Shown here: positions 1-21,101 of the stretch, in pieces
Layout: every line of letters starts with the position of its first letter
How positions within the stretch are numbered: the stretch's first letter is position 1
Source of the DNA: a virus
Strand: one strand, 5' to 3'
Virus record (IMG/VR): IMGVR_UViG_3300049255_000569
Location: 1 to 21,101 of that record
DNA length: 21,101 nt
The notes under the pieces: generated by a model
Database searches by the model: none
The model's input: only the letters and a program-made list of their open reading frames with translations
What the model was told of the DNA's origin: nothing
Translations under genes and position numbers: made by a program

Positions 1-2006
1 ATGGCCGAAACGAATTCCGCCGCGGATCCAGATGGGACGGGGATGTTCCAGACCCTGCAGACGTGGTTCCGGCAGGACCGCGACCATACGCATGACTGGC
101 GGCGTGAGGCGCGCGAGAGCTTCGACATGGTGGCCGGTCACCAATGGTCACCGGAAGATACGGCCAAACTGAAGATCGAGCTGCGTCCCGTCGTGACGTT
201 CAACCGCGTGGCGACCGTGATCGACAGCGTGGCCGGGCTCGAAGTGGGCAACCGCCAGGAGGTGCGGTTCATCCCACGCCAGCTCGGCCAGGCGGGCGTG
301 AACGACCTTTTGACCGGCGCGGCCAAATGGATCCGCGACGAATGCGACGCGGAGGACGAGGAATCGGACGCCTTCGTCGATTTGATCGTCACCGGCATGG
401 GGTGGACCGAGACGCGTCTCGACTGGACGAGGATGCGGATGGCCGGCTGAAGGTCGAGCGGGTCGATCCGCTCGAGATGTATTGGGACGGCAGCGCCACC
501 AAGAAGAACCTCGGCGATGCGCGGCGCATGTTCCGCGTGCGCGAGGTGCCGCTGGAGGTGGCCGAGGACATGTTCCCCGGGGCAGACGCGGCCGATCTGC
601 ATGCCGGGTGGGCCGATGACGCGGGGGCCGGTCCCAACTCGCCGCACGACGCGCAGCAGGCCCCGTTCTATCGCAACGACCAGTCGCCTGAGATCGACAA
701 GTCCAAGATGAAGGTGCGCCTCGTCGAGGCGCAGTGGTGGGACCACGAGAAGGTCTGGCGCGCCCTCGATCCGTTCACCGGCCGCGTCGTCACGGTGAAG
801 TCCGACGAGTTCGAGGTCTTGAAGGCGAGGCTCGCGGCGCTCGGCCTGTCGACGCCGGCCGCCGTGGCGCAGAAGCGGCGCGTCTATTGGCGCGCGTTCC
901 TCGGCGCCAGGCTGCTCAAGCAATGGCGCGGGCCGGACCAGGGCGGCTTCACGTACAAGTGCATGACCGGCAAGCGCGACCGCAACCAGGGCATTTGGTA
1001 CGGCCTCGTGCGGGCGATGATCGACCCCCAGAAATGGGCCAACAAGTGGCTGAGCCAGGTCCTGCACATCATCAACACGAACGCCAAGGGCGGAATCCTG
1101 GCGGAAGCCGACGCGTTCGACAACCCGCAGGAGGCCGAGGACACCTGGGCCGATCCGAGCGCCATCACCTGGCTGTCGCCCGACGCCCTCCGGCTCGGGA
1201 AGATCAAGGACAAGCCGCAGGCGCAATGGCCGCAGGGGGTCGAAAGCCTGATGCAGTTTGCGATCGCGTCGATCCGCGACGTGACCGGGGTCAATCTCGA
1301 GCTCCTCGGCCTCGTCGACCGTGAGCAGCCGGGAATCCTGGAGCATCAACGCAAACAGGCCGGCATGACCATTCTCGCCGGCTTGTTCGATTCCTTGCGG
1401 CGCTACCGCAAGGAGCAAGGGCGGCTGATGCTCTGGTACATCACCGAGTTCTTGTCCGACGGCCGGCTGGTGCGCATCGGCGGGCCTGAGGAGGCGCGCT
1501 ACATCCCCCTGCTGCGCCAACCCGGCACGGTCATCTACGACGTGATCGTCGATGACACACCGAGCTCGCCGAACCTCAAGGAGCGCACCTGGGCCGTCCT
1601 CGTCCAGATGATGCCGTTCCTGGCGCAGCTGCCGGTGCCGCCACAGGTCTATCTCGAGATCCTGAAATACGCGCCGCTGCCGGACACCATGATCGCCGAC
1701 ATCGCCCGCGCTGCCATGCAGCCGCCGCCGCGCCCACCTGTGGGCCCGGACCCACGGCTGCCCGAAATCCAGTCGCGCGCCCAGCTCAACGCGGCCAAGG
1801 CCAACCTCCACAATGCGCAAGCGGCAGCGGCAATGCTGCGGGCACGCGGCGATGTGGCCGAAAGCGCCGCCGCGGCCACCGCCAAGCGGGCAAGCGCAGC
1901 GCTCGACCTGGCCAAAACCGGCGCCGTGCACACTGGCCGCGCGATCGACAGCTTCAATGCGATCGCGGAGGCGCTCGGCCGAACCGCAGCGCCCCGTCAG
2001 CCGTAG
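1..2006 (+). CDS. P22-like portal protein, interrupted by a one-base frameshift
   Basis: The portal is the dodecameric ring at the capsid vertex through which DNA is packaged and ejected. Residues 1-142 are read in frame 1 (1-426); the rest continues one base back (-1) to the stop at 2006, giving about 668 residues, near the size of P22-type portals (about 725). Family-like segments include the N-terminal helix with W-rich ETRLDW, then [17 protein letters not shown] across the junction, a central region around [16 protein letters not shown], and an Ala-rich helical tail resembling a barrel. Read literally, the first frame stops at 450 and the second has no good start near the junction, so the gene is either broken, mis-sequenced or recoded. 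The window begins at its ATG, so its ribosome site is not visible. Location just upstream of the scaffold and coat genes fits a portal. Family call is confident; intactness is not. Confidence 0.85.
420..450 (+). other. Frameshift site in the portal gene
   Basis: Frame 1 reads ETRLDW, then runs into TGA at 448-450. Stepping back one base after the codon ending at 426 gives [19 protein letters not shown], a typical acidic turn for this family. This is equivalent to loss of one G next to 425-426. No X XXY YYZ slippery heptamer is visible here and I saw no obvious downstream pseudoknot, so a point deletion or a sequencing/assembly error is more likely than programmed recoding. Confidence 0.8.
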
Positions 2007-2979: not shown

Positions 2980-3046
2980 AAATTCGCCGGATCCGCCGGC
3001 TCAACTGATGCCGGCAGGGACAACACCGGCCCGGAGGATCGGCAAG

Positions 3047-3739
3047 ATGCCCGGAACGTTCGACACCCTGTTCGACCACGACGAGCCGATGGGAGCTTTC
3101 GGCGGCTATCGGCCGCAGTTTCAGAACGTCGTCGCCAAGCTGGCGGACAACCGAAAGAGTCCTGGCCAGGTGACCCCGGTCACTGACACTGCCGCCGCGC
3201 CGGCTGCATATAGCGACGCTGCGCCAAGCGTGCTGACTTATCCCGACGGCTCGCCGGTGCTCGACGGCCAAGGCCATCCTTATCTGCAGCCGCCAGGGCT
3301 CGACATGCAAAAGAACCTCGCGATCGGGCAGGATATTGCCGACAAAGCGGAGCAGGTTCTGCCGACCGGAGAACCCCCGTTGGACCGCGACGCTATGTTC
3401 GCCCCTCATTTCATTCCGGGCGGCGATATGGACTACAAACGGCCGGACGGGACGTTTGGGTCGCGTGACATGCAGTTCCGCCCGGCCACTTATTACAATT
3501 ACGGGGCGATGGCGGCGAAGGCGGGATATGGCGAGGAAGAGGCCCTTCGGAATGCGGGTCTCTACAACCGATATCTGGGCGGGAGGTATTTGGGCGCCAA
3601 CGGCGTCAACACGCTGTTTGGCCATCCGCCAAAGCTGAAGAATCCTTATGGCCTCGACGGCGATGATGCGGAAGCATACATCCGGCAGGGCTATGAGGAT
3701 TATGCGAACGGACGTTGGACGCCGAGCCCGTCGAATTGA
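3047..3739 (+). CDS. Cargo protein A1, polymorphic toxin type 44-like C-terminus
   Basis: A 230-residue protein. The start at 3047 is chosen because GGAGG (3033-3037) sits 9 bases upstream and because the sequence from MPGTFDTLFD onward matches the second copy A2 (4797). Residues 1-30 are nearly identical to A2; 42-70 share PVTD and APSVLTYPDGSP; then the copies diverge. Residues about 116-222 resemble the polymorphic toxin type 44 domain as I remember it: DMDYKR (127-132), YYNYGAMAAKAGYGEEE (149-165), LRNAGLYN (167-174), NPYGLDGDDAEAYIRQGYED (199-218). There is no signal peptide or membrane segment. It is followed 17 bases later by membrane protein B1. Toxin 44 domains occur at the ends of bacterial effectors; I do not know a firmly established activity. 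It could instead be a degenerate or virion-packaged protein. Domain resemblance is from memory, not a search. Confidence 0.6.
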   Translation: MPGTFDTLFDHDEPMGAFGGYRPQFQNVVAKLADNRKSPGQVTPVTDTAAAPAAYSDAAPSVLTYPDGSPVLDGQGHPYLQPPGLDMQKNLAIGQDIADKAEQVLPTGEPPLDRDAMFAPHFIPGGDMDYKRPDGTFGSRDMQFRPATYYNYGAMAAKAGYGEEEALRNAGLYNRYLGGRYLGANGVNTLFGHPPKLKNPYGLDGDDAEAYIRQGYEDYANGRWTPSPSN

Positions 3740-3756
3740 TCTTACGAAACGCTCCG

Positions 3757-4326
3757 ATGATCGAAAACAAACGTCGCCTTTCGGACCGCATTACGTTGTG
3801 GCTCGCCTGGACCGCGATCGGGTCTGCTACGGCGCCGTTCGTCCTGCCAATCGTCGCGGTCTCCGCCTGGCTTGCCATTTCCGTTTACTTGGAAGTCTGG
3901 CGAAGCCACTACGGTCTTGGCTGTTCGGCGCATACGATTTCGGACGTGCTATCGCCATCAGGCCGATGGACCGCACGAGCCCGGCGCGTTCACTGTTTCA
4001 CGATCTCACGAGATCCGGCGACCAATCAGTGGATTCAGGTCGTCCTCATCTCCAACGATCGGCCGCGCGTTTTCGCCCGGTATCGCGAGGTTTTTTATCG
4101 TTTCCTCGGCGATGAACGGCCCCGTGACGGCGGCCGGATCGCTTTGAAATGGACTGGCGATTACGCGTTGGAGATCGACACGCCGCCGTGCGAGCCGGCT
4201 TGCGAAAGAGCGGACAACGGCACGCCCCTATTGGCGCCAACAGGCATCCAACCATGCGACGCCGAATGCCGCAACGAAACGAGGGCGGCCAGCGTCCGCG
4301 TCTCGGTCAAGCCGCCGCAGAGCTAA
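3757..4326 (+). CDS. Membrane-anchored Cys-rich partner B1
   Basis: A 189-residue protein; the first in-frame ATG after A1 whose N-terminus matches a membrane protein is at 3757. Residues 12-45 are strongly hydrophobic (one long or two short membrane segments) after a positive N-terminus. The rest is soluble and contains GLGCSAHTISDVLSPSGRW (53-71), a Cys at 80, the segment IQVVLISND, KWTGDYALEI (131-140) and two Cys pairs (CEPAC 145-149, CDAEC 167-171). B2 has the same order of elements and the same Cys positions. The paired cysteines suggest a disulfide-bonded domain outside the cytoplasm. Directly following a toxin-44-like gene, it is placed like an immunity protein, but superinfection exclusion or a lysis accessory role is also possible. 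No ribosome site of note is seen. I do not recognise a named family with confidence. Confidence 0.65.
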   Translation: MIENKRRLSDRITLWLAWTAIGSATAPFVLPIVAVSAWLAISVYLEVWRSHYGLGCSAHTISDVLSPSGRWTARARRVHCFTISRDPATNQWIQVVLISNDRPRVFARYREVFYRFLGDERPRDGGRIALKWTGDYALEIDTPPCEPACERADNGTPLLAPTGIQPCDAECRNETRAASVRVSVKPPQS

Positions 4327-4796
4327 CTTCGAGCGCGCCGAAGTACGAGGCATCGCCAGCCCTGCGACTCCCGGCGCCAGGATCATCAACGACATAAGCG
4401 GCATCGCCGAAGCCGCCGCAGTATTGACCAGTGCTGAGCGTGCGAGCGCTGTTGTTTCGTCAACGCAATTGGCCATCTTGCCTACAAGGCATCTTGGCGC
4501 TTGATCCCCGCTTCGTGGTTCGCATAGCTTCCGAAATTGAAGCTGGCGAGTTCCGCTTAAACGTCGCCGGTCTTTGCGCGAGCGTATTTGCCGTCGTCAG
4601 CGACAGCGTCCGCCGCTCCCTCTTTCGGAATGAAACGCCTGATCTGCTGCAGAGCAGACGTCCGGCGGTCTATCCATGGCCCTCGCATCCTCACGTTTGC
4701 GCGGGGCGCTGCGTCATACGTGACGCCCGCGTGTCGACCCCGGACTCATCTCCCCCGCGATGTTCAGGGCGCCACATCCGCGCGCCGGCTCGCAAC
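4327..4796. other. Long gap between cargo units, no convincing gene
   Basis: This 470-base stretch separates B1 from A2. It holds the first copy of the 110-bp repeat (4436-4545) and, just before it at 4410-4427, a short sequence reading KPPQY-stop that resembles the last codons of B1 (KPPQS-stop, 4312-4326). This hints at a degraded B-like 3' end. The frame of A2 stays open upstream to 4431, but no ribosome site or homology supports an extended start. From 4546 to 4796 I see nothing I can name. Confidence 0.5.
4436..4545. repeat. 110-bp direct repeat, copy 1
   Basis: It matches 5878-5987 without gaps, with four mismatches in 110 bases, all in the first 40 bases. It contains a small hairpin (TGCCT-ACA-AGGCA, 4479-4491). 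It follows a B-type gene end and precedes A2. It has no convincing coding potential. It could be a promoter/leader element, a recombination joint or a recent conversion tract. Confidence 0.9.
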
Positions 4797-5360
4797 ATGC
4801 CCGGAACCTTCGATACCCTGTTCGACGACGACGAGCCCATGGGGGCCTTCGGCGGCTATCGGCCGCCGTACCAAAACGTCGTCGCCGTACCCGCCAGCAA
4901 CAGGCTGGGCCCCGGTCCAGTGACTCCGGTCACTGACGCGACCGCCGCATCCGGCGCAAATGGCGACGCCGCTGCCCCAAGCGTGCTGACCTATCCCGAC
5001 GGCTCGCCGGGGATGGATATCAACACGGGTCAGCCATACCCGCGGCCCGATCGGCTCAACATGCAAAACAACATTGCAACGGGACAAGTTTTAAAACGGC
5101 TTGCCGATGCGCCCCCGGGAGATATTCCAAATCCGAACGTAATGTTTGCGATGTTGTTTCCTCATGGATCTCTGATGGACGACCAAAGACCCCTTGGTCG
5201 TCAAGATGGCCCATTTGACCAAACCAATACCAATGTCAGCGCCTACAACTTCGGGGTGGTCGGTGCTGCGGCTGGCCATGACCTCGAGGATCTCTTGAGG
5301 GGGGCCGGATCGTATAATCTCTGGCGTGGCAATCCGTCGCCCAGTCCAGTTGAGCCATGA
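4797..5360 (+). CDS. Cargo protein A2, shortened toxin type 44-like copy
   Basis: A 187-residue paralogue of A1. The start at 4797 is set by its match to the A1 N-terminus (MPGTFDTLFD), since no clear ribosome site is visible. About 80 of the first 90 bases agree with A1. Residues 42-47 and 60-71 keep PVTPVTD and APSVLTYPDGSP. In the C-terminal region it keeps AYNFGVVGAAAG (149-160) and LLRGAGSYN (166-174), the family core. However, DYK becomes DDQ (128-130), and the segment NPYG...DAEAYIRQGYEDY of A1 is absent: the protein passes straight from GSYNLWRGN to the PSPS end. It may therefore be an inactive toxin, a decoy or a differently specialised copy. Its stop overlaps the start of B2 (ATGA), so the two are probably translationally coupled. 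Confidence 0.6.
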   Translation: MPGTFDTLFDDDEPMGAFGGYRPPYQNVVAVPASNRLGPGPVTPVTDATAASGANGDAAAPSVLTYPDGSPGMDINTGQPYPRPDRLNMQNNIATGQVLKRLADAPPGDIPNPNVMFAMLFPHGSLMDDQRPLGRQDGPFDQTNTNVSAYNFGVVGAAAGHDLEDLLRGAGSYNLWRGNPSPSPVEP

Positions 5361-5869
5361 CAATCCTCAATCGCGTGGCTGTGCTCTCGGCATGGGCGGG
5401 TTTGGCCGCCGTTGTAGGCGTGATCGCCGTAATGATTGTCGGCCCGTTTGTTCGCGCCGGTTTGTCGGTTTACCTTGTTTGGCATCGGGGTTACGGGGTG
5501 GCGTGTGCCGGGCACGTACTTTCAGAAGCCCTATCGCCGTCGAAACGCTGGCTCGCCAAAGCCCGGCTTGTTTCATGTGGAGGCGTCGCTGGTGGGCAGT
5601 CAGTGGACGTCGTACTCGTGCCTAATGTCGCGATCCCGCTCGCGGTTCGCTACACGGAAGTGTTCTCGCGGCATATCGAAAGCGGCATGCGGGATCGGGG
5701 GGATCATCTTGCCGTTCATTGGCTCGATGACCACGCGCTCGAACTGGAAGGCGCGCCCTGTGTGCCGTGTCAAAGTGGGAGCTATCCTCGGCGGTCGTGC
5801 GATTGGGAATGCCGAGCTGCGAGTGAGGTGAACGGCATCACGATTCTATTGAAGCTGACGCAGCATTGA
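5357..5869 (+). CDS. Membrane-anchored Cys-rich partner B2
   Basis: A 170-residue paralogue of B1. The ATG overlaps the A2 stop by four bases (ATGA). Residues 6-42 form a long hydrophobic N-terminal region. The soluble part aligns with B1 in order: GVACAGHVLSEALSPSKRW (47-65), Cys74, DVVLVPN (84-90), EVFSRH (101-106), HWLDDHALELE (121-131), CVPC (135-138), CDWEC (148-152), and a short hydrophobic C-terminal strand ending LKLTQH. Overall identity to B1 is modest (I estimate 30-35%), but cysteines and hydrophobic pattern are kept, so the fold is under selection. Role as for B1: predicted to be anchored with a disulfide-stabilised domain outside the cytoplasm, possibly an immunity partner of A2. 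Whether it is one-pass or two-pass is not clear from reading. Confidence 0.65.
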   Translation: MTILNRVAVLSAWAGLAAVVGVIAVMIVGPFVRAGLSVYLVWHRGYGVACAGHVLSEALSPSKRWLAKARLVSCGGVAGGQSVDVVLVPNVAIPLAVRYTEVFSRHIESGMRDRGDHLAVHWLDDHALELEGAPCVPCQSGSYPRRSCDWECRAASEVNGITILLKLTQH

Positions 5870-13934: not shown

Positions 13935-15392
13935 ATGGCCGAGCTCAACAACTCCGGCACGGGCCAGTGGTCGGAGACCGACGCCAACAACACCTCGCCG
14001 CCGCCAGACGGCGCACCAGTCGGCACGTTCCCCAACCAGGCAGAAGGCATCTGGCGCGCGATCATGGGGGCGCTCAAGCGCTTCTGGGACCGCATCAATG
14101 GGACCGTGACGACAACGGGCTCGGCCGGAGCCTATGTCTACGCCCCGAGCAATACGAGTTTCCCGACGGCCTACGTGCAGGGCGAGACGTATGTCTGGCG
14201 CGCCAACTTCACCAGCGTCGGCGGCGACACGCTAAACATCAACGCGCTCGGCGCCAAGGGCATCTACAAGCCGTCGACCAGCGGACTGACGGCCATTGCG
14301 GCCGGCGACATCCAGAGCGGCCAGATCGTCCACACCGTCTACGACGCCAATCTCGGGGGCGGCGCCGGTGGATTCCAGCTCATGAGCCCGATTGCCAACG
14401 GGCTCAATCCTGCCAGCCTCACGGCGAAGCCGTCCCCTTCGGCATCCGATCTGATCGTCATCGGCGATTCAGCCGCGAGCAGCGTTGCGAAGACGGCGAC
14501 CGTGGCGGCCATTGTCGCTCTCGCCACTCCTCAGGGTGAGACCGTTTCGTCTCAAACCGGCGGAAGCTTCTCGGCCGGCACGACGAACAACACGCTCTAC
14601 GTCGTGAGCAGTCAAGCCTCGGTCGCGACACTGCCGAGCGCCGGATCGTCCGGCGTGGCAGTCGGCTTCCGCGTCGGAGTCAAAAACCAAAGCGACGGGC
14701 TGGCGGTGTCAATCGCACCGCAAAGCGGCGATACGATCGACGGGCTGGCGAGCTATGCGGTTCCGGGCCGCGATACGATCTGGCTGGTCAAGGACAGCGC
14801 CGGGTCGTGGACGGTCGAGATGCCGCCTAAGCATCTCATCGGCGAGACGGTTCAGTGGGATGCGAATACGCTGCCGGCGGGCGGATGGGCGTGGAAGAAC
14901 GGCCAGTCGCTCAGCACCTCCGCCTATGGCGGCCTGTTTGCGATCTTAGGCTATGCGTATGGCGGCTCCGGATCCTCGTTCGGCGTGCCGGACGAGCGCG
15001 GCCGTCTGAAGGCCGGCAATGACGCCATGGGGGGCGCCTCGGCAGCCAACCGGATCACGAGCGGCGGCTCCGGCATCGTCGGCACGACCACGGGCGCCGC
15101 GGGAGGAGCGGAGACAGTATCCCTTACGGTCGCGCAGCTCGCCTCACACAGTCACGGCGTCAGCGATCCCGGCCACGGCCACGGGGTAAACGATCCGGGG
15201 CATGCGCACGGTACAGCACAATGGCTTAGGGTCGATATTTCTGGCGGATACGGCTTGGGTGTATGTGGCTCCTGGGTCATATTCACCCCGGTGCTCCTTC
15301 ATCCAATTCCAGCACTCCATTCCGAGAAAGAGAGGCGAGGCTCTTGTTTCGATCTGTGTGAAGAACGTCGGCGCGCGGCAGCGGAGGTCTGA
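13935..15392 (+). CDS. Tail fibre with phage tail collar domain, altered C-terminus
   Basis: A 485-residue fibre-like protein for host recognition. Residues 1-55 hold an N-terminal segment (MAELNNSGTG; NQAEGIWRAIMGALKRFWDR) typical of podoviral fibre attachment ends. About 60-300 are beta-rich. Residues 302-365 form a tail collar domain (IGETVQWDANTLPAGGWAWK; FGVPDERGRLKAGND). Residues 404-426 carry repeated His-x-His motifs (SHSHGVSD, GHGHGVND, GHAHG), like the metal-binding knobs of other fibres. After residue 428 (base about 15219) the sequence no longer resembles a fibre and ends in a charged, Cys-containing tail. This last part overlaps the convergent gene at 15144-15686, so the receptor-binding tip looks replaced or lost. 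GGAG at 13925-13928 supports the start. Confidence 0.85.
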   Translation: MAELNNSGTGQWSETDANNTSPPPDGAPVGTFPNQAEGIWRAIMGALKRFWDRINGTVTTTGSAGAYVYAPSNTSFPTAYVQGETYVWRANFTSVGGDTLNINALGAKGIYKPSTSGLTAIAAGDIQSGQIVHTVYDANLGGGAGGFQLMSPIANGLNPASLTAKPSPSASDLIVIGDSAASSVAKTATVAAIVALATPQGETVSSQTGGSFSAGTTNNTLYVVSSQASVATLPSAGSSGVAVGFRVGVKNQSDGLAVSIAPQSGDTIDGLASYAVPGRDTIWLVKDSAGSWTVEMPPKHLIGETVQWDANTLPAGGWAWKNGQSLSTSAYGGLFAILGYAYGGSGSSFGVPDERGRLKAGNDAMGGASAANRITSGGSGIVGTTTGAAGGAETVSLTVAQLASHSHGVSDPGHGHGVNDPGHAHGTAQWLRVDISGGYGLGVCGSWVIFTPVLLHPIPALHSEKERRGSCFDLCEERRRAAAEV

Positions 15393-15686
15393 GAGCACGT
15401 GATGCTGCGCAACTGTGAAAAGAAAAATTTGGAAGTCGACCGCGAAGAGATTCGGTTCGACCAGAACCGGAAAACCTCTGTTCACAGGATCGTAATAATT
15501 CAACCCGTGCAACTGTGGGCCGAAAAGACTGTGAATTTGAAATATCGCGCGGTCCAGCGCTGAGGCTCGGAACTGACGTGCGTTTTCTCGAAACGATCCG
15601 TAAGTGTTGAGGACCGGGTTGAAATCGATCGATCTCGGGCCAACGGCGAAGAAGTGCGGAATGAGGATCGCGACACGTGGGCTCAT
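15144..15686 (-). CDS. Truncated glycosylation-associated protein
   Basis: A 180-residue leftward frame whose ATG overlaps the stop of the upstream gene (ATGA, 15683-15686), so it belongs to the glycosyltransferase operon. Residues 40-137 (SALDRAIFQIHSLFGPQLHG; SPLFLGMECWNWMKEHRGEY) resemble a protein family I have seen in bacterial polysaccharide loci, where the segment LLGFEC...YD continues into an acidic EDD motif. Here the resemblance stops at residue 137 (base 15276), and what follows (PGATYTQAVSAR onward) reads through the tail fibre's 3' end. I therefore regard it as C-terminally truncated and probably inactive. The family link is from memory and moderate. Base composition is lower in G/C than the virion genes. 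Confidence 0.55.
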   Translation of the reverse strand: MSPRVAILIPHFFAVGPRSIDFNPVLNTYGSFRENARQFRASALDRAIFQIHSLFGPQLHGLNYYDPVNRGFPVLVEPNLFAVDFQIFLFTVAQHHVLSDLRCRAPTFFTQIETRASPLFLGMECWNWMKEHRGEYDPGATYTQAVSARNIDPKPLCCTVRMPRIVYPVAVAGIADAVTV

Positions 15687-16639
15687 GCGCCGAACGTCTC
15701 CCTGATCGTCGTAGCGAATGACGAAAGGGCAGGCAGCTCCGCTTTCATTTTTTCGTACATCGCCCGAGCGTGCTCGCGGTCGCCTGCGCGAGCACCAAAT
15801 TCTGTGCAGATCTCGAGGAATTTCTCCTTCGGCGTTACGATACAGTAGGAAGCCAGATAGTGCGGCGCCCCATCATATTCGACGATCACCGGAACGCGAT
15901 TCATGATCGCGTGGTGGACGCGCGAGATCGAAAATATGTGATGATTTTCGGTCTTCTGAACCGATAGCGTCGCCCGCGTCCGCTCCAGCGTGCTATCGCG
16001 TATGAAGGTCGGCTCGAACGCTGTGGCATACGTCGTAAAGCCGAGCTGCATCAGCTTGCGCGCCATTTCCATGCGGCGCTCCGTGGGCTCGCCTGAAATG
16101 TGGAAGTCAATTTGGCGCGGGCGTTGTGATGGCTCGCGTAGCGTTGCAAATCCATCGAGATAGCCGAACTTGAGGAAGTGACTGTTCGGATTAATCGTAC
16201 GACATACCGAAACCGACTCTTCGATCAAACACCACACAAACTCGGCATTTTGGGCTGAGACGCTGAAGTCCTGGAATTTCTTTCTCGCTTGTTCGGGCGT
16301 CATATCGGGCGCGCTATACAGGCCATCTTCCGTCAGATGCTCTGTACAGATGAGGCCGTAGCGATAACCGCGATGCTTCAACTCGGTCGCCTGCTCCGGC
16401 TTGTAGAAATATTCCCAGAAGAGATTAATGGCCCCGGCGTCAACGTGACTGAGATTGATGTCGACGCGATGGCCAAGTTGTTCGAGCGCCATCCTGATAA
16501 AACGAACCATGTCGTGCCCCAGCGACACGCGTAGGAAATGTAGATTAATGGTCTCGGCATGAGTGGCTCGCTGAAGGAGCGTGTTGCCGAAGCTCATATT
16601 GAAGTGCATCAGGCTTAACGTTAGCTGCGTGCTCACCAA
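15683..16639 (-). CDS. GT-B-like glycosyltransferase
   Basis: A protein of up to 318 residues; the start is uncertain, being TTG at 16639, GTG at 16636 or ATG at 16609, with no clear ribosome site. It reads as a GT-B fold: an N-terminal half with LGHDMVRFIRMALEQLGHRV and the strand YGLICTEHL, a linker FLKFGYLDGF, then a C-terminal half with RQIDFHISGEPTERRMEMAR and the motif LSVQKTENHHIFSISRVHHA followed by IMNRVPVIVEYDG, which resembles the donor-binding region of glycosyltransferases (conserved E in TEN, helix, then VPVIVE). It has the same block order as the next gene (16683-17594), so they are paralogues. Probable role: sugar transfer to host surface or fibre. The donor and acceptor are unknown. 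Lower G/C than neighbours. Confidence 0.65.
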   Translation of the reverse strand: MVSTQLTLSLMHFNMSFGNTLLQRATHAETINLHFLRVSLGHDMVRFIRMALEQLGHRVDINLSHVDAGAINLFWEYFYKPEQATELKHRGYRYGLICTEHLTEDGLYSAPDMTPEQARKKFQDFSVSAQNAEFVWCLIEESVSVCRTINPNSHFLKFGYLDGFATLREPSQRPRQIDFHISGEPTERRMEMARKLMQLGFTTYATAFEPTFIRDSTLERTRATLSVQKTENHHIFSISRVHHAIMNRVPVIVEYDGAPHYLASYCIVTPKEKFLEICTEFGARAGDREHARAMYEKMKAELPALSSFATTIRETFGA

Positions 16640-16682
16640 AAGAAAAGCGGCCTAGCCGAAAAAGGATGGACGCCGGCATCCG

Positions 16683-17594
16683 TCACGCCCCCAGCGCCGG
16701 ACACTCATCGAAGTTGCGTTCGATCTCAGCCTTGTGCGGCAGTTGGGTCCGATAGTTGGCGGCGATCTCCTGCGCTTGGGCGAACGCGGCCGCTCGGTCG
16801 CGGCCGAGATGGCCAAACCGGGCAAGGAAGTCCTCGGGCGACGTGAACGTCGGGAACAGCTGTGATTGGCGGGTGACCATGGAGGTGGCCTCGGCGGCGC
16901 AGCCGACGCGGGCATGACCGATCCGCGCCAGCCGCGTCTGCGGCGGCATGGCCCAGTCGGGATGCTGCTTCAGGCAGACATGTACGGCCGAGTAACGGAT
17001 CAGGTCGATATAGTCGGCCGGCGGCAGCGCCACCGCCGTATTCTGCGCAAGGTTCACGCCCGGTGTTTGGAGATCCACCTTGCCCGCCACGGCCTCGAGG
17101 AACCGCCGACGATGCGGGGTGAGAGCGCCGCTGAACGAGAAATCGTGGCGCCACGCCGAGGGCGCGACTGGATTGGCCAGAAGCTCCGTATATCCCAGCT
17201 CGAAATATGTGGCGGGCGCGATCTTGCGCAGCGCCTCGACGTTGGACGGCACCGACGTGATGAAGCCCTTGTAGTGTTCGGCGATCGACAGGAAGTCGGC
17301 GTAGCGCCGGCGCCCGTCCCAGGCGCCGTGCGCATCGTCGAATTTGTCGTCGGCGATCACTTCGGTCACGAAGCAGATGAGATTGATCTTGCCGCGATGC
17401 GCCTCGAGGAACGGCTTGAATCCCGAGTTTTGAAACTCGAAGATGATGTTGGGGACATCGGCGCGAAACAAGCGGTCCGACGCCGACAGCTTGAGGCCCA
17501 GCTCCTCGCAGCCCGCCCATAGCCAGTCGATGAGATCCGAAAGCGTGGTCGCGCGGCCGCCGTGGTTCGCCGTGTTGATGTGGATCTCGCGCAT
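16683..17594 (-). CDS. Putative GT-B-like glycosyltransferase, paralogue of neighbour
   Basis: A 303-residue protein starting MREIHINTANHGGRATTLSD, 7 bases after the stop of the GT41 gene. Segments parallel those of the 15683-16639 gene: NIIFEFQNSGF, KINLICFVTEVI, YKGFITSVPSNVEALRKI, ATYFELGYTELL, RHDFSFSGALTPHRRRFLEA, then the C-terminal YIDLIRYSAVHVCLKQHP followed by RLARIGHARVGCAAEAT, a recognisable acceptor/donor-half layout. The C-terminal part lacks the TEN-type motif of its neighbour. G/C content is high, like the virion genes, so it was probably acquired separately from the A/T-rich neighbour. Substrates are unknown. Confidence 0.6.
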   Translation of the reverse strand: MREIHINTANHGGRATTLSDLIDWLWAGCEELGLKLSASDRLFRADVPNIIFEFQNSGFKPFLEAHRGKINLICFVTEVIADDKFDDAHGAWDGRRRYADFLSIAEHYKGFITSVPSNVEALRKIAPATYFELGYTELLANPVAPSAWRHDFSFSGALTPHRRRFLEAVAGKVDLQTPGVNLAQNTAVALPPADYIDLIRYSAVHVCLKQHPDWAMPPQTRLARIGHARVGCAAEATSMVTRQSQLFPTFTSPEDFLARFGHLGRDRAAAFAQAQEIAANYRTQLPHKAEIERNFDECPALGA

Positions 17595-17601
17595 GGGCGA
17601 T

Positions 17602-19371
17602 TTATACGGCCTTCCGTCCGGCGGCGCACCAACGGCGCCAGGTCATGCGCAGCAGGCGTTCGAAATGGCGGGCATACGACCGCCCGTCGCACAGAGGCGA
17701 CGTCGCGACGCGCGCTGGCAAGCCCCCGCGAAAGGCCGCGAGCTGTGCGGGATCTTGCGCCAGCCGTTCGGCGATTGCCACGTACTCGGCCGGCGTGCGG
17801 GCGATCAGGCCATCGAGCTTCAGGGTGTGCAGAAGAGAGGCGCTCCATCGGCCGACCATCGCGTCACCCCACAGTGTCACCACCGGGACGCCGACGGATA
17901 GCGCTTCGAACGTCGTGGTCGAGCCCGTGAACGGGAAGGGGTCCAAGGCGACGTCGATCTGTTCATAGGCGGCAAGGTGCGCCTGATAATCCGCGAGCCC
18001 CCGCCGAAATTCGACGCGCTCGGGAGCGATGCCGAGCCAGGTCAACATTCGCTGGCGCAGGCCTTCGTCGGCGTACCAATCCTGGAAGCCAAACCGGATA
18101 TGCGCGCGCGGCAGGCGCTGCAGCAATTGGCGCCAAAGATCGAGGACGGCGTCGTTGAGCTTGGCCGGATTATTGAAGCTTGCAAACGTGACATAGCCAT
18201 GTCGCGCGGCCGGCGGGCCGCCGATGTCCGGCACGCCCGCAATCGGGTCGTGAATGTAGAAATGAGGGAGACGGACGACGCGCTCGGTAAAGCCTTCGCT
18301 CGTGCGGCGCGGGGCCAGCAGCGGGTCGGCCACGAGGTAGTCGAGCGGAAGACCGCTGGTGGCCGGATCGTGAAAGCTGACCAACAGCGGTGCCGGCCGC
18401 AAGGCTGCGACGAGTGGCCGATTTCGGTCGAAGCGGCCGGCGAGGACGAGAAGGATATCGATCTCGTCGCGGCGAATAAGGTCGGCCGCTTCGGCATCGG
18501 AGCGGCCTTTGATGTCGCGCCATCCCTGCGCGGCGCTCTTGAACCGCGCTGTCATGTCATCCTCTCTCGCGATGTCGGCGTAGCAGACGGAGACGACGCG
18601 GTCGGGGTCGAGATTGGAGAAGAGCGGCCAGACGTTGCGTGCCACAGGGTGTCGGCTCAAGTCGGCGGACAGCCAGCCGATCCGGAGGCGCCGGTTTGGA
18701 TCGGGAACGTTCGGGAAGGCCGCCGCCGGCGTCGGCGCCGCAAACCGCTCGCCGAACGCCCGGTGCAGGGCAAACCGTTCGGCTTGTCCGAGCGCCGGGT
18801 CATAGAGGGCGGCCGTCAGAAGCGACCGATAGCACTCCGCATCGCCGGGTTCGTCGCTCAACGCCTCGGCGTAGGTCGCGCGGGCCTCGGTCGGCCGTCC
18901 CGTCTTCTGGAGGATCTCGGCCAGCCCCTTGCGCGCGCCGGCGTGCGAGGGAGATACGGCAAGAACCTGGCGGTAGGTACGTTCCGCCTCGAAGCGTTCG
19001 ACCGTGCGCAACGCGGAGGCGAGGTTCATCAACGCCGGTACGTAGCTCGGCGCCAGCGACGCTGCCTTCCGGAAGCTGGCGATAGCAGCGGGAAGATCGC
19101 CGCTGTCGTCCAACGCTTTGCCGAGATTGTTGTGGAACGGGGCCATATCCGGCCGTAGTGCCGTCGCCCGCTTGAGCAGCCGGACGGCGTCCACAAGCTC
19201 GCCGCGTTGCCCCGCCACCAGACCCAACAGGTGGAGCGCGTCGGCGTTCTCGGGGTCGTGATCCAGCACCTCGCGATACGCCGCTTCAGCCTCGGCGAGA
19301 CGCCCCGACTTCTGGGCAGCAAGCCCGCGTTCGAGCCGGGCGCGACTCTGGTCTGCAACTCTGCCGGACAT
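17602..19371 (-). CDS. TPR-GT41 protein O-glycosyltransferase (FlmG/OGT-like)
   Basis: A 589-residue cytoplasmic enzyme. The start MSGRVADQSR at 19371 is chosen because the TPR fold begins there; upstream residues are unlike the family. Residues about 10-175 are roughly five tetratricopeptide repeats (for example ALHLLGLVAGQRGELVDAVR; NNLGKALDDSGDLPAAIASF). Residues 228-585 are a GT41 (SPINDLY/OGT) catalytic domain: IGWLSADLSRHPV with His241, equivalent to a conserved OGT histidine; SFHDPATSGLPLDYLVADP (332-350); FASFNNPAKLND with Lys404, equivalent to the OGT UDP-binding lysine; DPFPFTGSTTTFEALSVGVP (477-496). This architecture is shared with alphaproteobacterial FlmG, which glycosylates flagellin. 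It heads the leftward glycosylation operon. Acceptor could be the tail fibre, another virion protein or a host surface protein. Confidence 0.88.
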   Translation of the reverse strand: MSGRVADQSRARLERGLAAQKSGRLAEAEAAYREVLDHDPENADALHLLGLVAGQRGELVDAVRLLKRATALRPDMAPFHNNLGKALDDSGDLPAAIASFRKAASLAPSYVPALMNLASALRTVERFEAERTYRQVLAVSPSHAGARKGLAEILQKTGRPTEARATYAEALSDEPGDAECYRSLLTAALYDPALGQAERFALHRAFGERFAAPTPAAAFPNVPDPNRRLRIGWLSADLSRHPVARNVWPLFSNLDPDRVVSVCYADIAREDDMTARFKSAAQGWRDIKGRSDAEAADLIRRDEIDILLVLAGRFDRNRPLVAALRPAPLLVSFHDPATSGLPLDYLVADPLLAPRRTSEGFTERVVRLPHFYIHDPIAGVPDIGGPPAARHGYVTFASFNNPAKLNDAVLDLWRQLLQRLPRAHIRFGFQDWYADEGLRQRMLTWLGIAPERVEFRRGLADYQAHLAAYEQIDVALDPFPFTGSTTTFEALSVGVPVVTLWGDAMVGRWSASLLHTLKLDGLIARTPAEYVAIAERLAQDPAQLAAFRGGLPARVATSPLCDGRSYARHFERLLRMTWRRWCAAGRKAV

Positions 19372-19476
19372 GCGGCTTTGTAACAGGAAAGCGGTGCCTT
19401 CTGTAGACGCCGCGACGCTGCTCGCCGTGCCCTGATGGCCCGCCCACCCGCCTTTCTGCCAGGAGACCCGAGGCCG
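19372..19476. promoter_or_regulatory. Divergent intergenic region, likely promoters both ways
   Basis: This 105-base gap separates the leftward glycosylation operon from the rightward lysis genes, so it should contain at least one promoter for each. No -35/-10 pair stands out, so I assign none. The only clear element is AGGAG at 19461-19465 for the first lysis gene. Confidence 0.4.
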
Positions 19477-19818
19477 ATGACCAAAGATCGACCGCTGCAC
19501 CCGCTCGCCGTCGCCCTGCGTTTCTTCTGCGGCCGCAAGGGAGCGGCGATGGCGCGGGCGCTGATCACGCTCTGGACATTCGCCGGCTTCGTCTTCGGCG
19601 GGTTTGGGACATGGGCGATCCGTGCCGCTTGGACGGAGTTCAGGGCGATGCGGACCGACATCGCCCAGATCAACGCCTACATCGCGGGCGACGACGCGCG
19701 CTGGCAGGCGCTCCGCAGCGATCTCGACGGCGTCCGCGCCGACACCCGGGTGCTCGCTGATCGCGTCAACGGCATCGATGTCCGCCTGGCGCGAGAGGAA
19801 GGCCATCATGACCGCTGA
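19477..19818 (+). CDS. One-TM coiled-coil protein in the lysis module
   Basis: A 113-residue protein. AGGAG at 19461-19465 supports the ATG at 19477. Residues 27-49 form one membrane span (LITLWTFAGFVFGGFGTWAI) after a basic N-terminus; residues 50-105 are a heptad-like helix (RTDIAQINAYIAGDDARWQA; DGVRADTRVLADRVNGID), ending GHHDR. The layout of a short N-terminus, one TM and a long external coil is that of an inner-membrane spanin subunit or a lysis accessory protein. It overlaps the endolysin start by 11 bases. No matching outer-membrane lipoprotein partner is visible. Confidence 0.6.
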   Translation: MTKDRPLHPLAVALRFFCGRKGAAMARALITLWTFAGFVFGGFGTWAIRAAWTEFRAMRTDIAQINAYIAGDDARWQALRSDLDGVRADTRVLADRVNGIDVRLAREEGHHDR

Positions 19819-20356
19819 AGCCGAGGAGCTGCGTACGGCGGCGATCCGTCCGGCGCTGAAGGCGCTCGAGCCCTTCGTCCCATATTCCCTGGCTGCCGAG
19901 AACCTTGTGCTCGGCACCGCCGCGCACGAGAGCGGCGGCTTCAAGTGGCGCCGGCAGCAGGGCGCCCACGGGATCCCGACCGGGCCGGCCCTGGGCCTGT
20001 GGCAGATCGAGCCCGCCACGCTGACCGACATCTACGACAATTTCCTGAAGTTCCGGCCGCGATTGGAGCGGGCGATCGAGTCCTGTCTGCCGCACGGCGA
20101 AGCGCAGATCGACCGGCTCGCGCAGCTCGAGGCGAACGATCGCTATGGGGCCGCTCTCTGTCGGCTCAAATATGTCCGCTCACCCATGAGGCTGCCCGCC
20201 GACCCGAACGACGTGTTCGGGATGGGGCGCCTGTGGGCCGCCGTCTACAACACGCGCTTTCCGGCACAGCGCTTCATCGACGATTACCGGCGTTACGTCG
20301 AGGACATGACTGACGCCCAGGTTGCCGCGCTCGCGGCGGCCGCGTCGACGCCATGA
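19808..20356 (+). CDS. Lysozyme-like endolysin
   Basis: A 182-residue protein likely to cleave peptidoglycan at lysis. It starts within the end of the preceding gene. The core TAAHESGGFKWRRQQGAHG (37-55) supplies a candidate catalytic Glu41, followed by the family-like ALGLWQIEPATLTDIYDN (61-78), as in lysozyme/transglycosylase-type domains where a Glu precedes a G-x-x-Q-I motif. The C-terminal half (QIDRLAQLEANDRYGAALCR; LWAAVYNTRFPAQRFIDDY) completes a helical lysozyme-like fold. No signal peptide, so it needs the holin encoded downstream to reach the wall. Enzyme class is inferred from motifs. Confidence 0.75.
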   Translation: MTAEAEELRTAAIRPALKALEPFVPYSLAAENLVLGTAAHESGGFKWRRQQGAHGIPTGPALGLWQIEPATLTDIYDNFLKFRPRLERAIESCLPHGEAQIDRLAQLEANDRYGAALCRLKYVRSPMRLPADPNDVFGMGRLWAAVYNTRFPAQRFIDDYRRYVEDMTDAQVAALAAAASTP

Positions 20357-20627: not shown

Positions 20628-21101
20628 ATGCCCACCTGGCTGGTCAATTTGCTGGGCGGCGGTCTGATCCAGACCATCGCCAGCTTCATTCCCAATCCTG
20701 AGGAAAAGGCGAAGGCGCAGCTGGCCATGCAGCAGGCCCTCGTTCAGGCGGCGATCGACGAGGCAAAGGACCAGCGCGACGTCGACAAGACCGAGGCGGC
20801 CAACCCGTCGATGTTTGTGGCCGGGTGGCGGCCGGCGGTCGGGTGGCTCTGCGTGGTGACGCTCTTCTACCAGTGGATCGCCGCGCCGTTCCTGACCTGG
20901 TCGGCGAACTGGGCGGCCGTGGCCTGGCACTGGACGATCCCGCAGCTGCCGCATCTCGACGGCACCGACACGCAGACCTTGCTGTACGCGCTGCTCGGCA
21001 TCGGCGGCCTGCGCACGGTCGACAAGATCACCGGCAACGACACGGTCGCGGTCGGGCTCGGCAAGATCGGCCAAGCGATCAAAGGGGCTGTCAAGAAATG
21101 A
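20628..21101 (+). CDS. Holin with three TM segments (GTA holin-like)
   Basis: A 157-residue protein. Hydrophobic segments: residues 3-20, then a charged helix (EEKAKAQLAMQQALVQAAID), then the strong pair 68-90 (VGWLCVVTLFYQWIAAPFLT) and 116-128 (TLLYALLGIGGL) followed by RTVDKITG and a basic C-terminus. The order, with PSMFVAGWRPAVGWL and GLRTVDKITG, fits the 3-TM holin family first described from gene transfer agents. It would form the inner-membrane lesion that lets the upstream endolysin through. It ends with the window, so what follows is unknown. Confidence 0.82.
   Translation: MPTWLVNLLGGGLIQTIASFIPNPEEKAKAQLAMQQALVQAAIDEAKDQRDVDKTEAANPSMFVAGWRPAVGWLCVVTLFYQWIAAPFLTWSANWAAVAWHWTIPQLPHLDGTDTQTLLYALLGIGGLRTVDKITGNDTVAVGLGKIGQAIKGAVKK

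What the first reader, a model, noticed from the sequence alone, without database searches (positions are those of the whole stretch)
15144..19371. Phage-borne glycosylation operon headed by a TPR-GT41 protein O-glycosyltransferase
GT41 enzymes of this architecture glycosylate flagellin in some alphaproteobacteria. Placed beside a tail fibre and read on the opposite strand with two further GT-like genes, it may modify the fibre or virion, or alter host flagella or surface and so block other phages. Key residues (His241, Lys404, GSTTT) are kept, so it is probably active.
Basis: partly seen in the sequence, partly recalled or inferred. Interest (0 to 1): 0.65.

Follow-up and report, generated by a model that had tools for sequence, protein, structure and literature searches.

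The report
Phage glycosyltransferase cassette beside tail fibre
This virus fragment carries an O-GlcNAc-transferase-type enzyme and helper sugar-transferase genes in a spot where closely related phages carry different sugar-modifying genes, so the phage probably decorates either its own particle or its host's surface with sugars; one of the four genes is broken and the target is unproven.

Summary
Window 17602-19371(-) encodes an intact TPR-GT41 protein (His241, Lys404, GSTTT kept). ORF2 and ORF3 follow in operon spacing; they are distant paralogs with weak GT-B similarity. ORF4 is not intact: it and the tail fibre are both cut at one junction (about 15210-15276), by a real deletion or an assembly join. 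The locus is phage on both sides: lysis genes resume at 19477, and two relatives (L002, MCP 94% identical; L003) carry different GT cassettes in the same fibre-lysis slot. The window's GT41 nests in an alphaproteobacterial clade and L003's lies elsewhere, so they were acquired separately. Flagellin modification rests on analogy only. Virion glycosylation is favoured indirectly: seven other phage GT41s, all beside the major capsid gene across three capsid families, form one phage-only clade, and a related complete phage has a TPR protein, a GT8-type enzyme and a methyltransferase beside its capsid gene. The main rival is host-surface modification: some related phages and prophages carry acyl- or methyltransferases in this slot. 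A known kind (phage glycosylation cassette), new variant.

The parts
17602..19371 (-). TPR-GT41 protein glycosyltransferase (OGT-type), 589 aa, intact
   Evidence: PF13844 E 7.9e-36 and TPR families; PDB 5djs, SPINDLY and animal OGT matches; His241, Lys404 kept
16683..17594 (-). ORF2, 303 aa, GT-B-like family member (weak)
   Evidence: paralog of ORF3, blastp E 1.4e-6; family A5 with 3/13 members hitting PF13524; 7 nt after OGT
15683..16639 (-). ORF3, up to 318 aa (likely start near 16609), same family as ORF2; bacterial homologs in some genomes as adjacent pairs
15276..15686 (-). ORF4 remnant: N-terminal ~137 aa of a ~295-aa family, GT-A-like by eye only; the open frame continues to 15144 antisense to the fibre
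   Evidence: homologs in L163, L168, L169; no Pfam match for ORF4 or homologs
15210..15276 (.). junction where fibre and ORF4 are both truncated (deletion or assembly join)
   Evidence: fibre homology ends near aa 425, ORF4 homology at residue 137
13935..15221 (+). tail fibre with Collar domain, C-terminus missing (open frame runs to 15392)
   Evidence: PF07484 E 3.7e-12; 65-74% identical to L002 fibre
19372..19476 (.). divergent intergenic region between cassette and lysis side; no promoter-like match found in it
19477..19818 (+). small phage gene on the lysis side, 74% identical to its L002 counterpart
19808..20356 (+). phrog_3108 gene (unknown function)
   Evidence: PHROGs E 1.7e-29
20628..21101 (+). 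3TM holin
   Evidence: PF11351 E 2.2e-15; 74% identical to L002

Best explanation
A phage-carried, exchangeable protein-glycosylation cassette. The TPR-GT41 enzyme is inferred to bind a cytoplasmic acceptor protein through its TPR array and put the first sugar on Ser/Thr; ORF2, ORF3 and (when intact) ORF4 are inferred to extend the glycan. The most likely acceptor is one of the phage's own virion proteins (fibre or capsid) before assembly, changing particle surface properties or receptor interaction. Shown: phage genes on both sides, catalytic residues kept, operon spacing, different GT cassettes in the same slot of close relatives, separate origins of the two GT41s. Inferred: acceptor, sugar donor, order of action, benefit. 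As sequenced, ORF4 and the fibre tip are broken.
For: Phage genes on both sides, the lysis side 52-74% identical to L002. L002 (MCP 94%) has a methyltransferase, a weak GT8 match, an exostosin-type GT and a GT4-type protein in the slot; L003 has a GT41, a GT7-type and a GT4-type protein. No O-antigen flippase, polymerase, GtrA or GtrB was identified in the cassettes. Seven other phage GT41s (L174, L177, L179-L183) lie within about 2.3 kb of the major capsid gene and form one phage-only clade, support 100/99; capsid families come from PHROGs for five of them, for L179 and L181 from matching N-termini. The complete phage MW202512 (MCP 58%) has a TPR protein, a GT8 and a methyltransferase between capsid and tail genes. 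Capsid glycans have precedent in mycobacteriophages Che8 and Rita (PMC11256854).
Against: The window OGT lies outside the capsid-adjacent clade, inside a bacterial clade, is read opposite to the virion genes and is not next to the capsid gene. Some relatives carry acyl- or methyltransferases in this slot, which fits surface modification. About half of the other phage GT41 contigs show no recognised capsid neighbour. Short contigs are called viral partly because they hold capsid genes, which inflates that association. No acceptor or glycan has been observed.
Confidence: 0.45

Rival explanations
1. Lysogenic-conversion moron: the cassette modifies a host surface glycan or glycoprotein in the lysogen and so excludes other phages, as gtrABC or oac genes do in P22-like and Shigella phages.
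For: Own strand, divergent from the lysis side; slot contents differ among close relatives; AT3 acyltransferases after the fibre in a Bradyrhizobium prophage (L147), methyltransferases between the fibre and a gene that looks lysozyme-like by eye in L154 and L156, a hexapeptide acyltransferase near the lysozyme of Rhizobium phage RHph_Y1_10, which has an integrase. P22-like precedent: PMC2629481.
Against: GT41 enzymes act on proteins in the cytoplasm (established for OGT and SPINDLY); no flippase, GtrA or GtrB identified in the window cassette. Nothing shows that this phage is temperate: the record is a fragment.
Confidence: 0.3
2. Flagellin modification (FlmG-like): the TPR domain binds host flagellin and alters motility or blocks flagellotropic phages.
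For: FlmG is a TPR-glycosyltransferase whose TPR domain binds flagellins (PMC7591256); GT41 enzymes occur in enterobacterial flagellin glycosylation islands (PMC4875605).
Against: No nonulosonate or flagellin gene recognised in the proteins scanned; the bacterial homolog surroundings read showed no flagellar genes; FlmG is described as GT-B superfamily, not GT41. Host unknown.
Confidence: 0.12
3. The segment from about 15.28 kb is partly an assembly chimera, or the phage is a decaying prophage, so the operon has no function as drawn.
For: Fibre and ORF4 cut at one point; portal frame broken at about nt 426 although relatives read it whole; GC3 falls from 0.79-0.83 (OGT, ORF2) to 0.63-0.67 (ORF3, ORF4).
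Against: OGT, ORF2 and ORF3 are open over their whole length with operon spacing; the OGT side joins lysis-side genes in the same arrangement as L002; relatives have GT cassettes in the same slot.
Confidence: 0.13

Closest known systems
GT41 family (OGT, SPINDLY, TtOGT, XcOGT)
   Same: TPR array plus GT41 catalytic domain; active-site His and Lys and the TTT donor-site motif
   Different: encoded by a phage, in a cassette with further sugar-transferase-like genes; donor and acceptor unknown
FlmG flagellin glycosyltransferase of Caulobacter (PMC7591256)
   Same: TPR domain followed by a glycosyltransferase domain, soluble, similar length (596 vs 589 aa)
   Different: described as GT-B superfamily, catalytic construct residues 309-596, works with pseudaminic acid; no such pathway or flagellin recognised in the window
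Mycobacteriophage capsid glycosylation (Che8, Rita; PMC11256854 citing Freeman 2023)
   Same: phage-encoded glycosyltransferases thought to act on virion proteins
   Different: enzyme families there were not compared here; different phage type and probably different host phylum
P22-like gtrABC / oac conversion operons (PMC2629481)
   Same: exchangeable sugar-modifying gene block in a phage with a P22-like portal
   Different: gtr enzymes act on O-antigen at the membrane; the window's key enzyme is a protein-type GT41

Membership tests
GT41 | GT41 catalytic domain over curated cut-off | tested here: met
   PF13844 123.8 bits vs 25
GT41 | active-site His and Lys | tested here: met
   His241, Lys404 aligned to TtOGT, SPINDLY, animal OGT and the phage set
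GT41 | N-terminal TPR array (OGT/SPINDLY type) | tested here: met
   several TPR Pfam families, residues ~18-193
GT41 | transfer of a sugar to Ser/Thr | not testable with these tools
   no assay
FlmG | TPR domain binds flagellin | not testable with these tools
   host and flagellin unknown
FlmG | flagellin or pseudaminate genes nearby | tested here: inconclusive
   none recognised in the proteins scanned, but not every ORF was scanned and the record is a fragment
P22-like gtrABC operon | GtrA flippase and GtrB glycosyltransferase | tested here: not met
   no such match for OGT, ORF2, ORF3 or ORF4 in Pfam or NCBIfam
GT-B glycosyltransferase (ORF2/ORF3) | significant match to a GT-B family or fold | tested here: inconclusive
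   3/13 members hit PF13524, best 8.7e-4; no PDB match; model pLDDT 34.5, no fold search made
capsid-adjacent phage GT41 clade | position inside that clade | tested here: not met
   window OGT nested in a bacterial set, 100/97

The most novel reading that the evidence does not exclude
Tailed phages of several unrelated lineages use TPR-GT41 (O-GlcNAc-transferase-type) enzymes to glycosylate their own capsid or tail proteins: one phage-only GT41 clade that has travelled with different capsid genes, plus separate recruitments of host GT41s such as the window's and L003's into an exchangeable slot beside the tail fibre.
Probability: 0.4. Interest if true: 0.72.

Novelty: new variant of a known kind. 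Interest (0 to 1): 0.5.

Why it matters
If the acceptor is a virion protein, this would be a cytoplasmic, OGT-type route to glycosylated phage particles, bearing on receptor binding, stability and immune recognition, and it offers small natural pairs (a GT41 and the neighbouring capsid protein) to test O-glycosylation in E. coli. If the acceptor is a host surface protein, it is a protein-based form of lysogenic conversion. Searches of the held papers for GT41 with phage, and for capsid glycosylation with O-GlcNAc transferase, listed no paper whose title or abstract describes phage GT41s; the library lacks most subscription journals.

Tried and rejected
Viral scans with OGT, ORF3 and ORF4 alone found no relatives. 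Phage isolates: OGT matched one record, over its TPR part only; ORF3 none; L183 GT41 none; L182 GT41 one short match over its first 92 residues. Holin relatives L009-L012 are other phages with no GT cassette noticed in the stretches read; L005/L006 likewise at this slot. A PF13844 search of 33 host genomes found GT41 in 10, on contigs other than the one with the capsid gene in each case, so no GT41 was found in those prophages, within contig limits. Comparison of the ORF2/ORF3 family profile with the L002 exostosin and GT4-type proteins gave no similarity. AlphaFold of ORF2 with ORF3: pLDDT 34.5, not used. Hydropathy of cassette proteins was computed, but the control holin scored no higher than some GTs, so it is not used as evidence of solubility. 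Rejected: 'bacterial flagellar locus with a phage remnant', because phage lysis-side genes follow the operon.

Full report
What the record is. The window is the whole of a 21,101-base virus record. On the plus strand it reads portal (PF16510), major capsid protein (PF13252), connector and ejection genes and a tail fibre with a Collar domain; then comes a minus-strand block; then small plus-strand genes ending in a 3TM holin. The portal frame changes at about nt 426: residues 11-142 of frame 1 and residues from 92-95 of frame 3 match the same portal genes of L013, L014, L019 and L029. So the record carries at least one frame break.

The block. OGT (17602-19371) is an intact TPR-GT41 protein. 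Its catalytic domain matches Thermobaculum OGT 5djs (E 1.7e-64), SPINDLY and animal OGT. In an alignment of 18 phage GT41s, His241 and Lys404 are shared throughout, L180's His being one column off. ORF2 follows after 7 nt, ORF3 after a further 43 nt, and ORF4 overlaps ORF3 by 4 nt. ORF2 and ORF3 are distant paralogs (E 1.4e-6); ORF3 matches 5 of 385 sampled Alphaproteobacteria genomes, in some as adjacent pairs. Their place among glycosyltransferases rests on 3 of 13 family members hitting PF13524, so 'GT-B-like' is provisional. GC3 drops from 0.79-0.83 in OGT and ORF2 to 0.63-0.67 in ORF3 and ORF4, which suggests two sources.

The break. Three ORF4 homologs are 294-310 aa; alignment with ORF4 stops at residue 137, just before a conserved EDD motif in them. 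The fibre loses the C-terminus that L002 and L003 share and the two small genes that follow it there. Both ends fall in about 15210-15276. A deletion and an assembly join would look the same; reads would be needed. The ORF4 family has no Pfam match, so 'GT-A-like' is a reading by eye.

Same slot in relatives. L002 (MCP 94% identical) and L003 carry mainly minus-strand blocks between fibre and lysis side: Methyltransf_24, a weak GT8 match, Exostosin_GT47/RXYLT1_C and a GT4-type protein in L002; GT41, a GT7-type protein (plus strand) and a GT4-type protein in L003. The two GT4-type proteins are 80% identical. Further off: AT3 acyltransferases after the fibre in the Bradyrhizobium prophage L147, methyltransferases between the fibre and a gene that looks lysozyme-like by eye in L154 and L156, and a hexapeptide acyltransferase near the lysozyme of Rhizobium phage RHph_Y1_10. 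For other prophages the ORFs listed after the fibre were read by N-terminus only and no such gene was picked out. Capsid relatives in genomes are mostly Alphaproteobacteria at the top of the list, which is the basis for guessing the host.

Where the GT41 comes from. Of 385 sampled alphaproteobacterial genomes, 151 match the catalytic domain, best 53%. In the tree of 43 domains the window OGT sits in a set with six bacterial rows (100/97) and L003's lies elsewhere, so the two were probably acquired separately. The GT41 surroundings printed (L137, L138, L141) were judged by N-terminal sequence and showed no flagellar genes. In the 10 of 33 prophage-bearing genomes that have a GT41, it lies on a contig other than that of the capsid gene.

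Other phage GT41s. A scan with five GT41 domains gave 18 viral contigs, one of them L003's. In L179, L181 and L182 the GT41 gene lies just upstream of the major capsid gene, in L174 with one small gene between; in L183 it lies two genes after it and before the head-tail adaptors; in L177 about 2.2 kb after it, with a methyltransferase gene among those between; in L180 one gene before it. PHROGs names the capsid proteins of L174, L177, L180, L182 and L183 (phrog_3437, phrog_10, phrog_212); those of L179 and L181 are assigned by near-identical N-termini. These seven GT41s form one phage-only clade (100/99). The other contigs show no recognised capsid neighbour; L178's neighbours had no PHROGs match. 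MW202512, a complete phage with a 58% identical capsid protein, has a 525-aa TPR protein, a methyltransferase and a GT8-type protein between capsid and tail genes; the TPR protein's C-terminal part has no good Pfam match, so calling it a TPR-glycosyltransferase is a guess.

Weighing. Virion glycosylation is favoured because GT41 enzymes act on proteins in the cytoplasm (established knowledge of OGT and SPINDLY), because no O-antigen machinery was identified in the block, and because a clade of other phage GT41s keeps company with capsid genes. It is weakened by the window OGT's different ancestry and strand, by acyl- and methyltransferases in the slot of some relatives, and by the bias of short viral contigs. 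Flagellin is possible but rests on analogy. I make no general claim on whether prophages carry such blocks: the two relatives with blocks like the window's are fragments, and among genome contigs some prophages have other sugar-modifying genes in this slot.

Noticed in passing
window 1-2006: Portal frame is broken at about nt 426 although relatives read it whole; sequence error or decay.
   Followed up: partly
window 3008-4326 and 4431-5869: Tandem duplication of a two-gene unit upstream of the capsid gene (copies 52% and 32% identical).
   Followed up: partly
L174, L177, L179-L183: Phage-only GT41 clade lying beside the major capsid gene in three capsid families.
   Followed up: partly
MW202512 (L191:13685-17118): TPR protein, endonuclease, methyltransferase and GT8-type gene between capsid and tail genes of a complete phage.
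   Followed up: partly
genomes G309 and G386: About 50 first-look GT41 candidates each in single alphaproteobacterial genomes, of which only five per genome were scored.
   Followed up: no
window 16664-16681: Terminator-like hairpin between ORF2 and ORF3; such matches are no more frequent than in shuffles.
   Followed up: no
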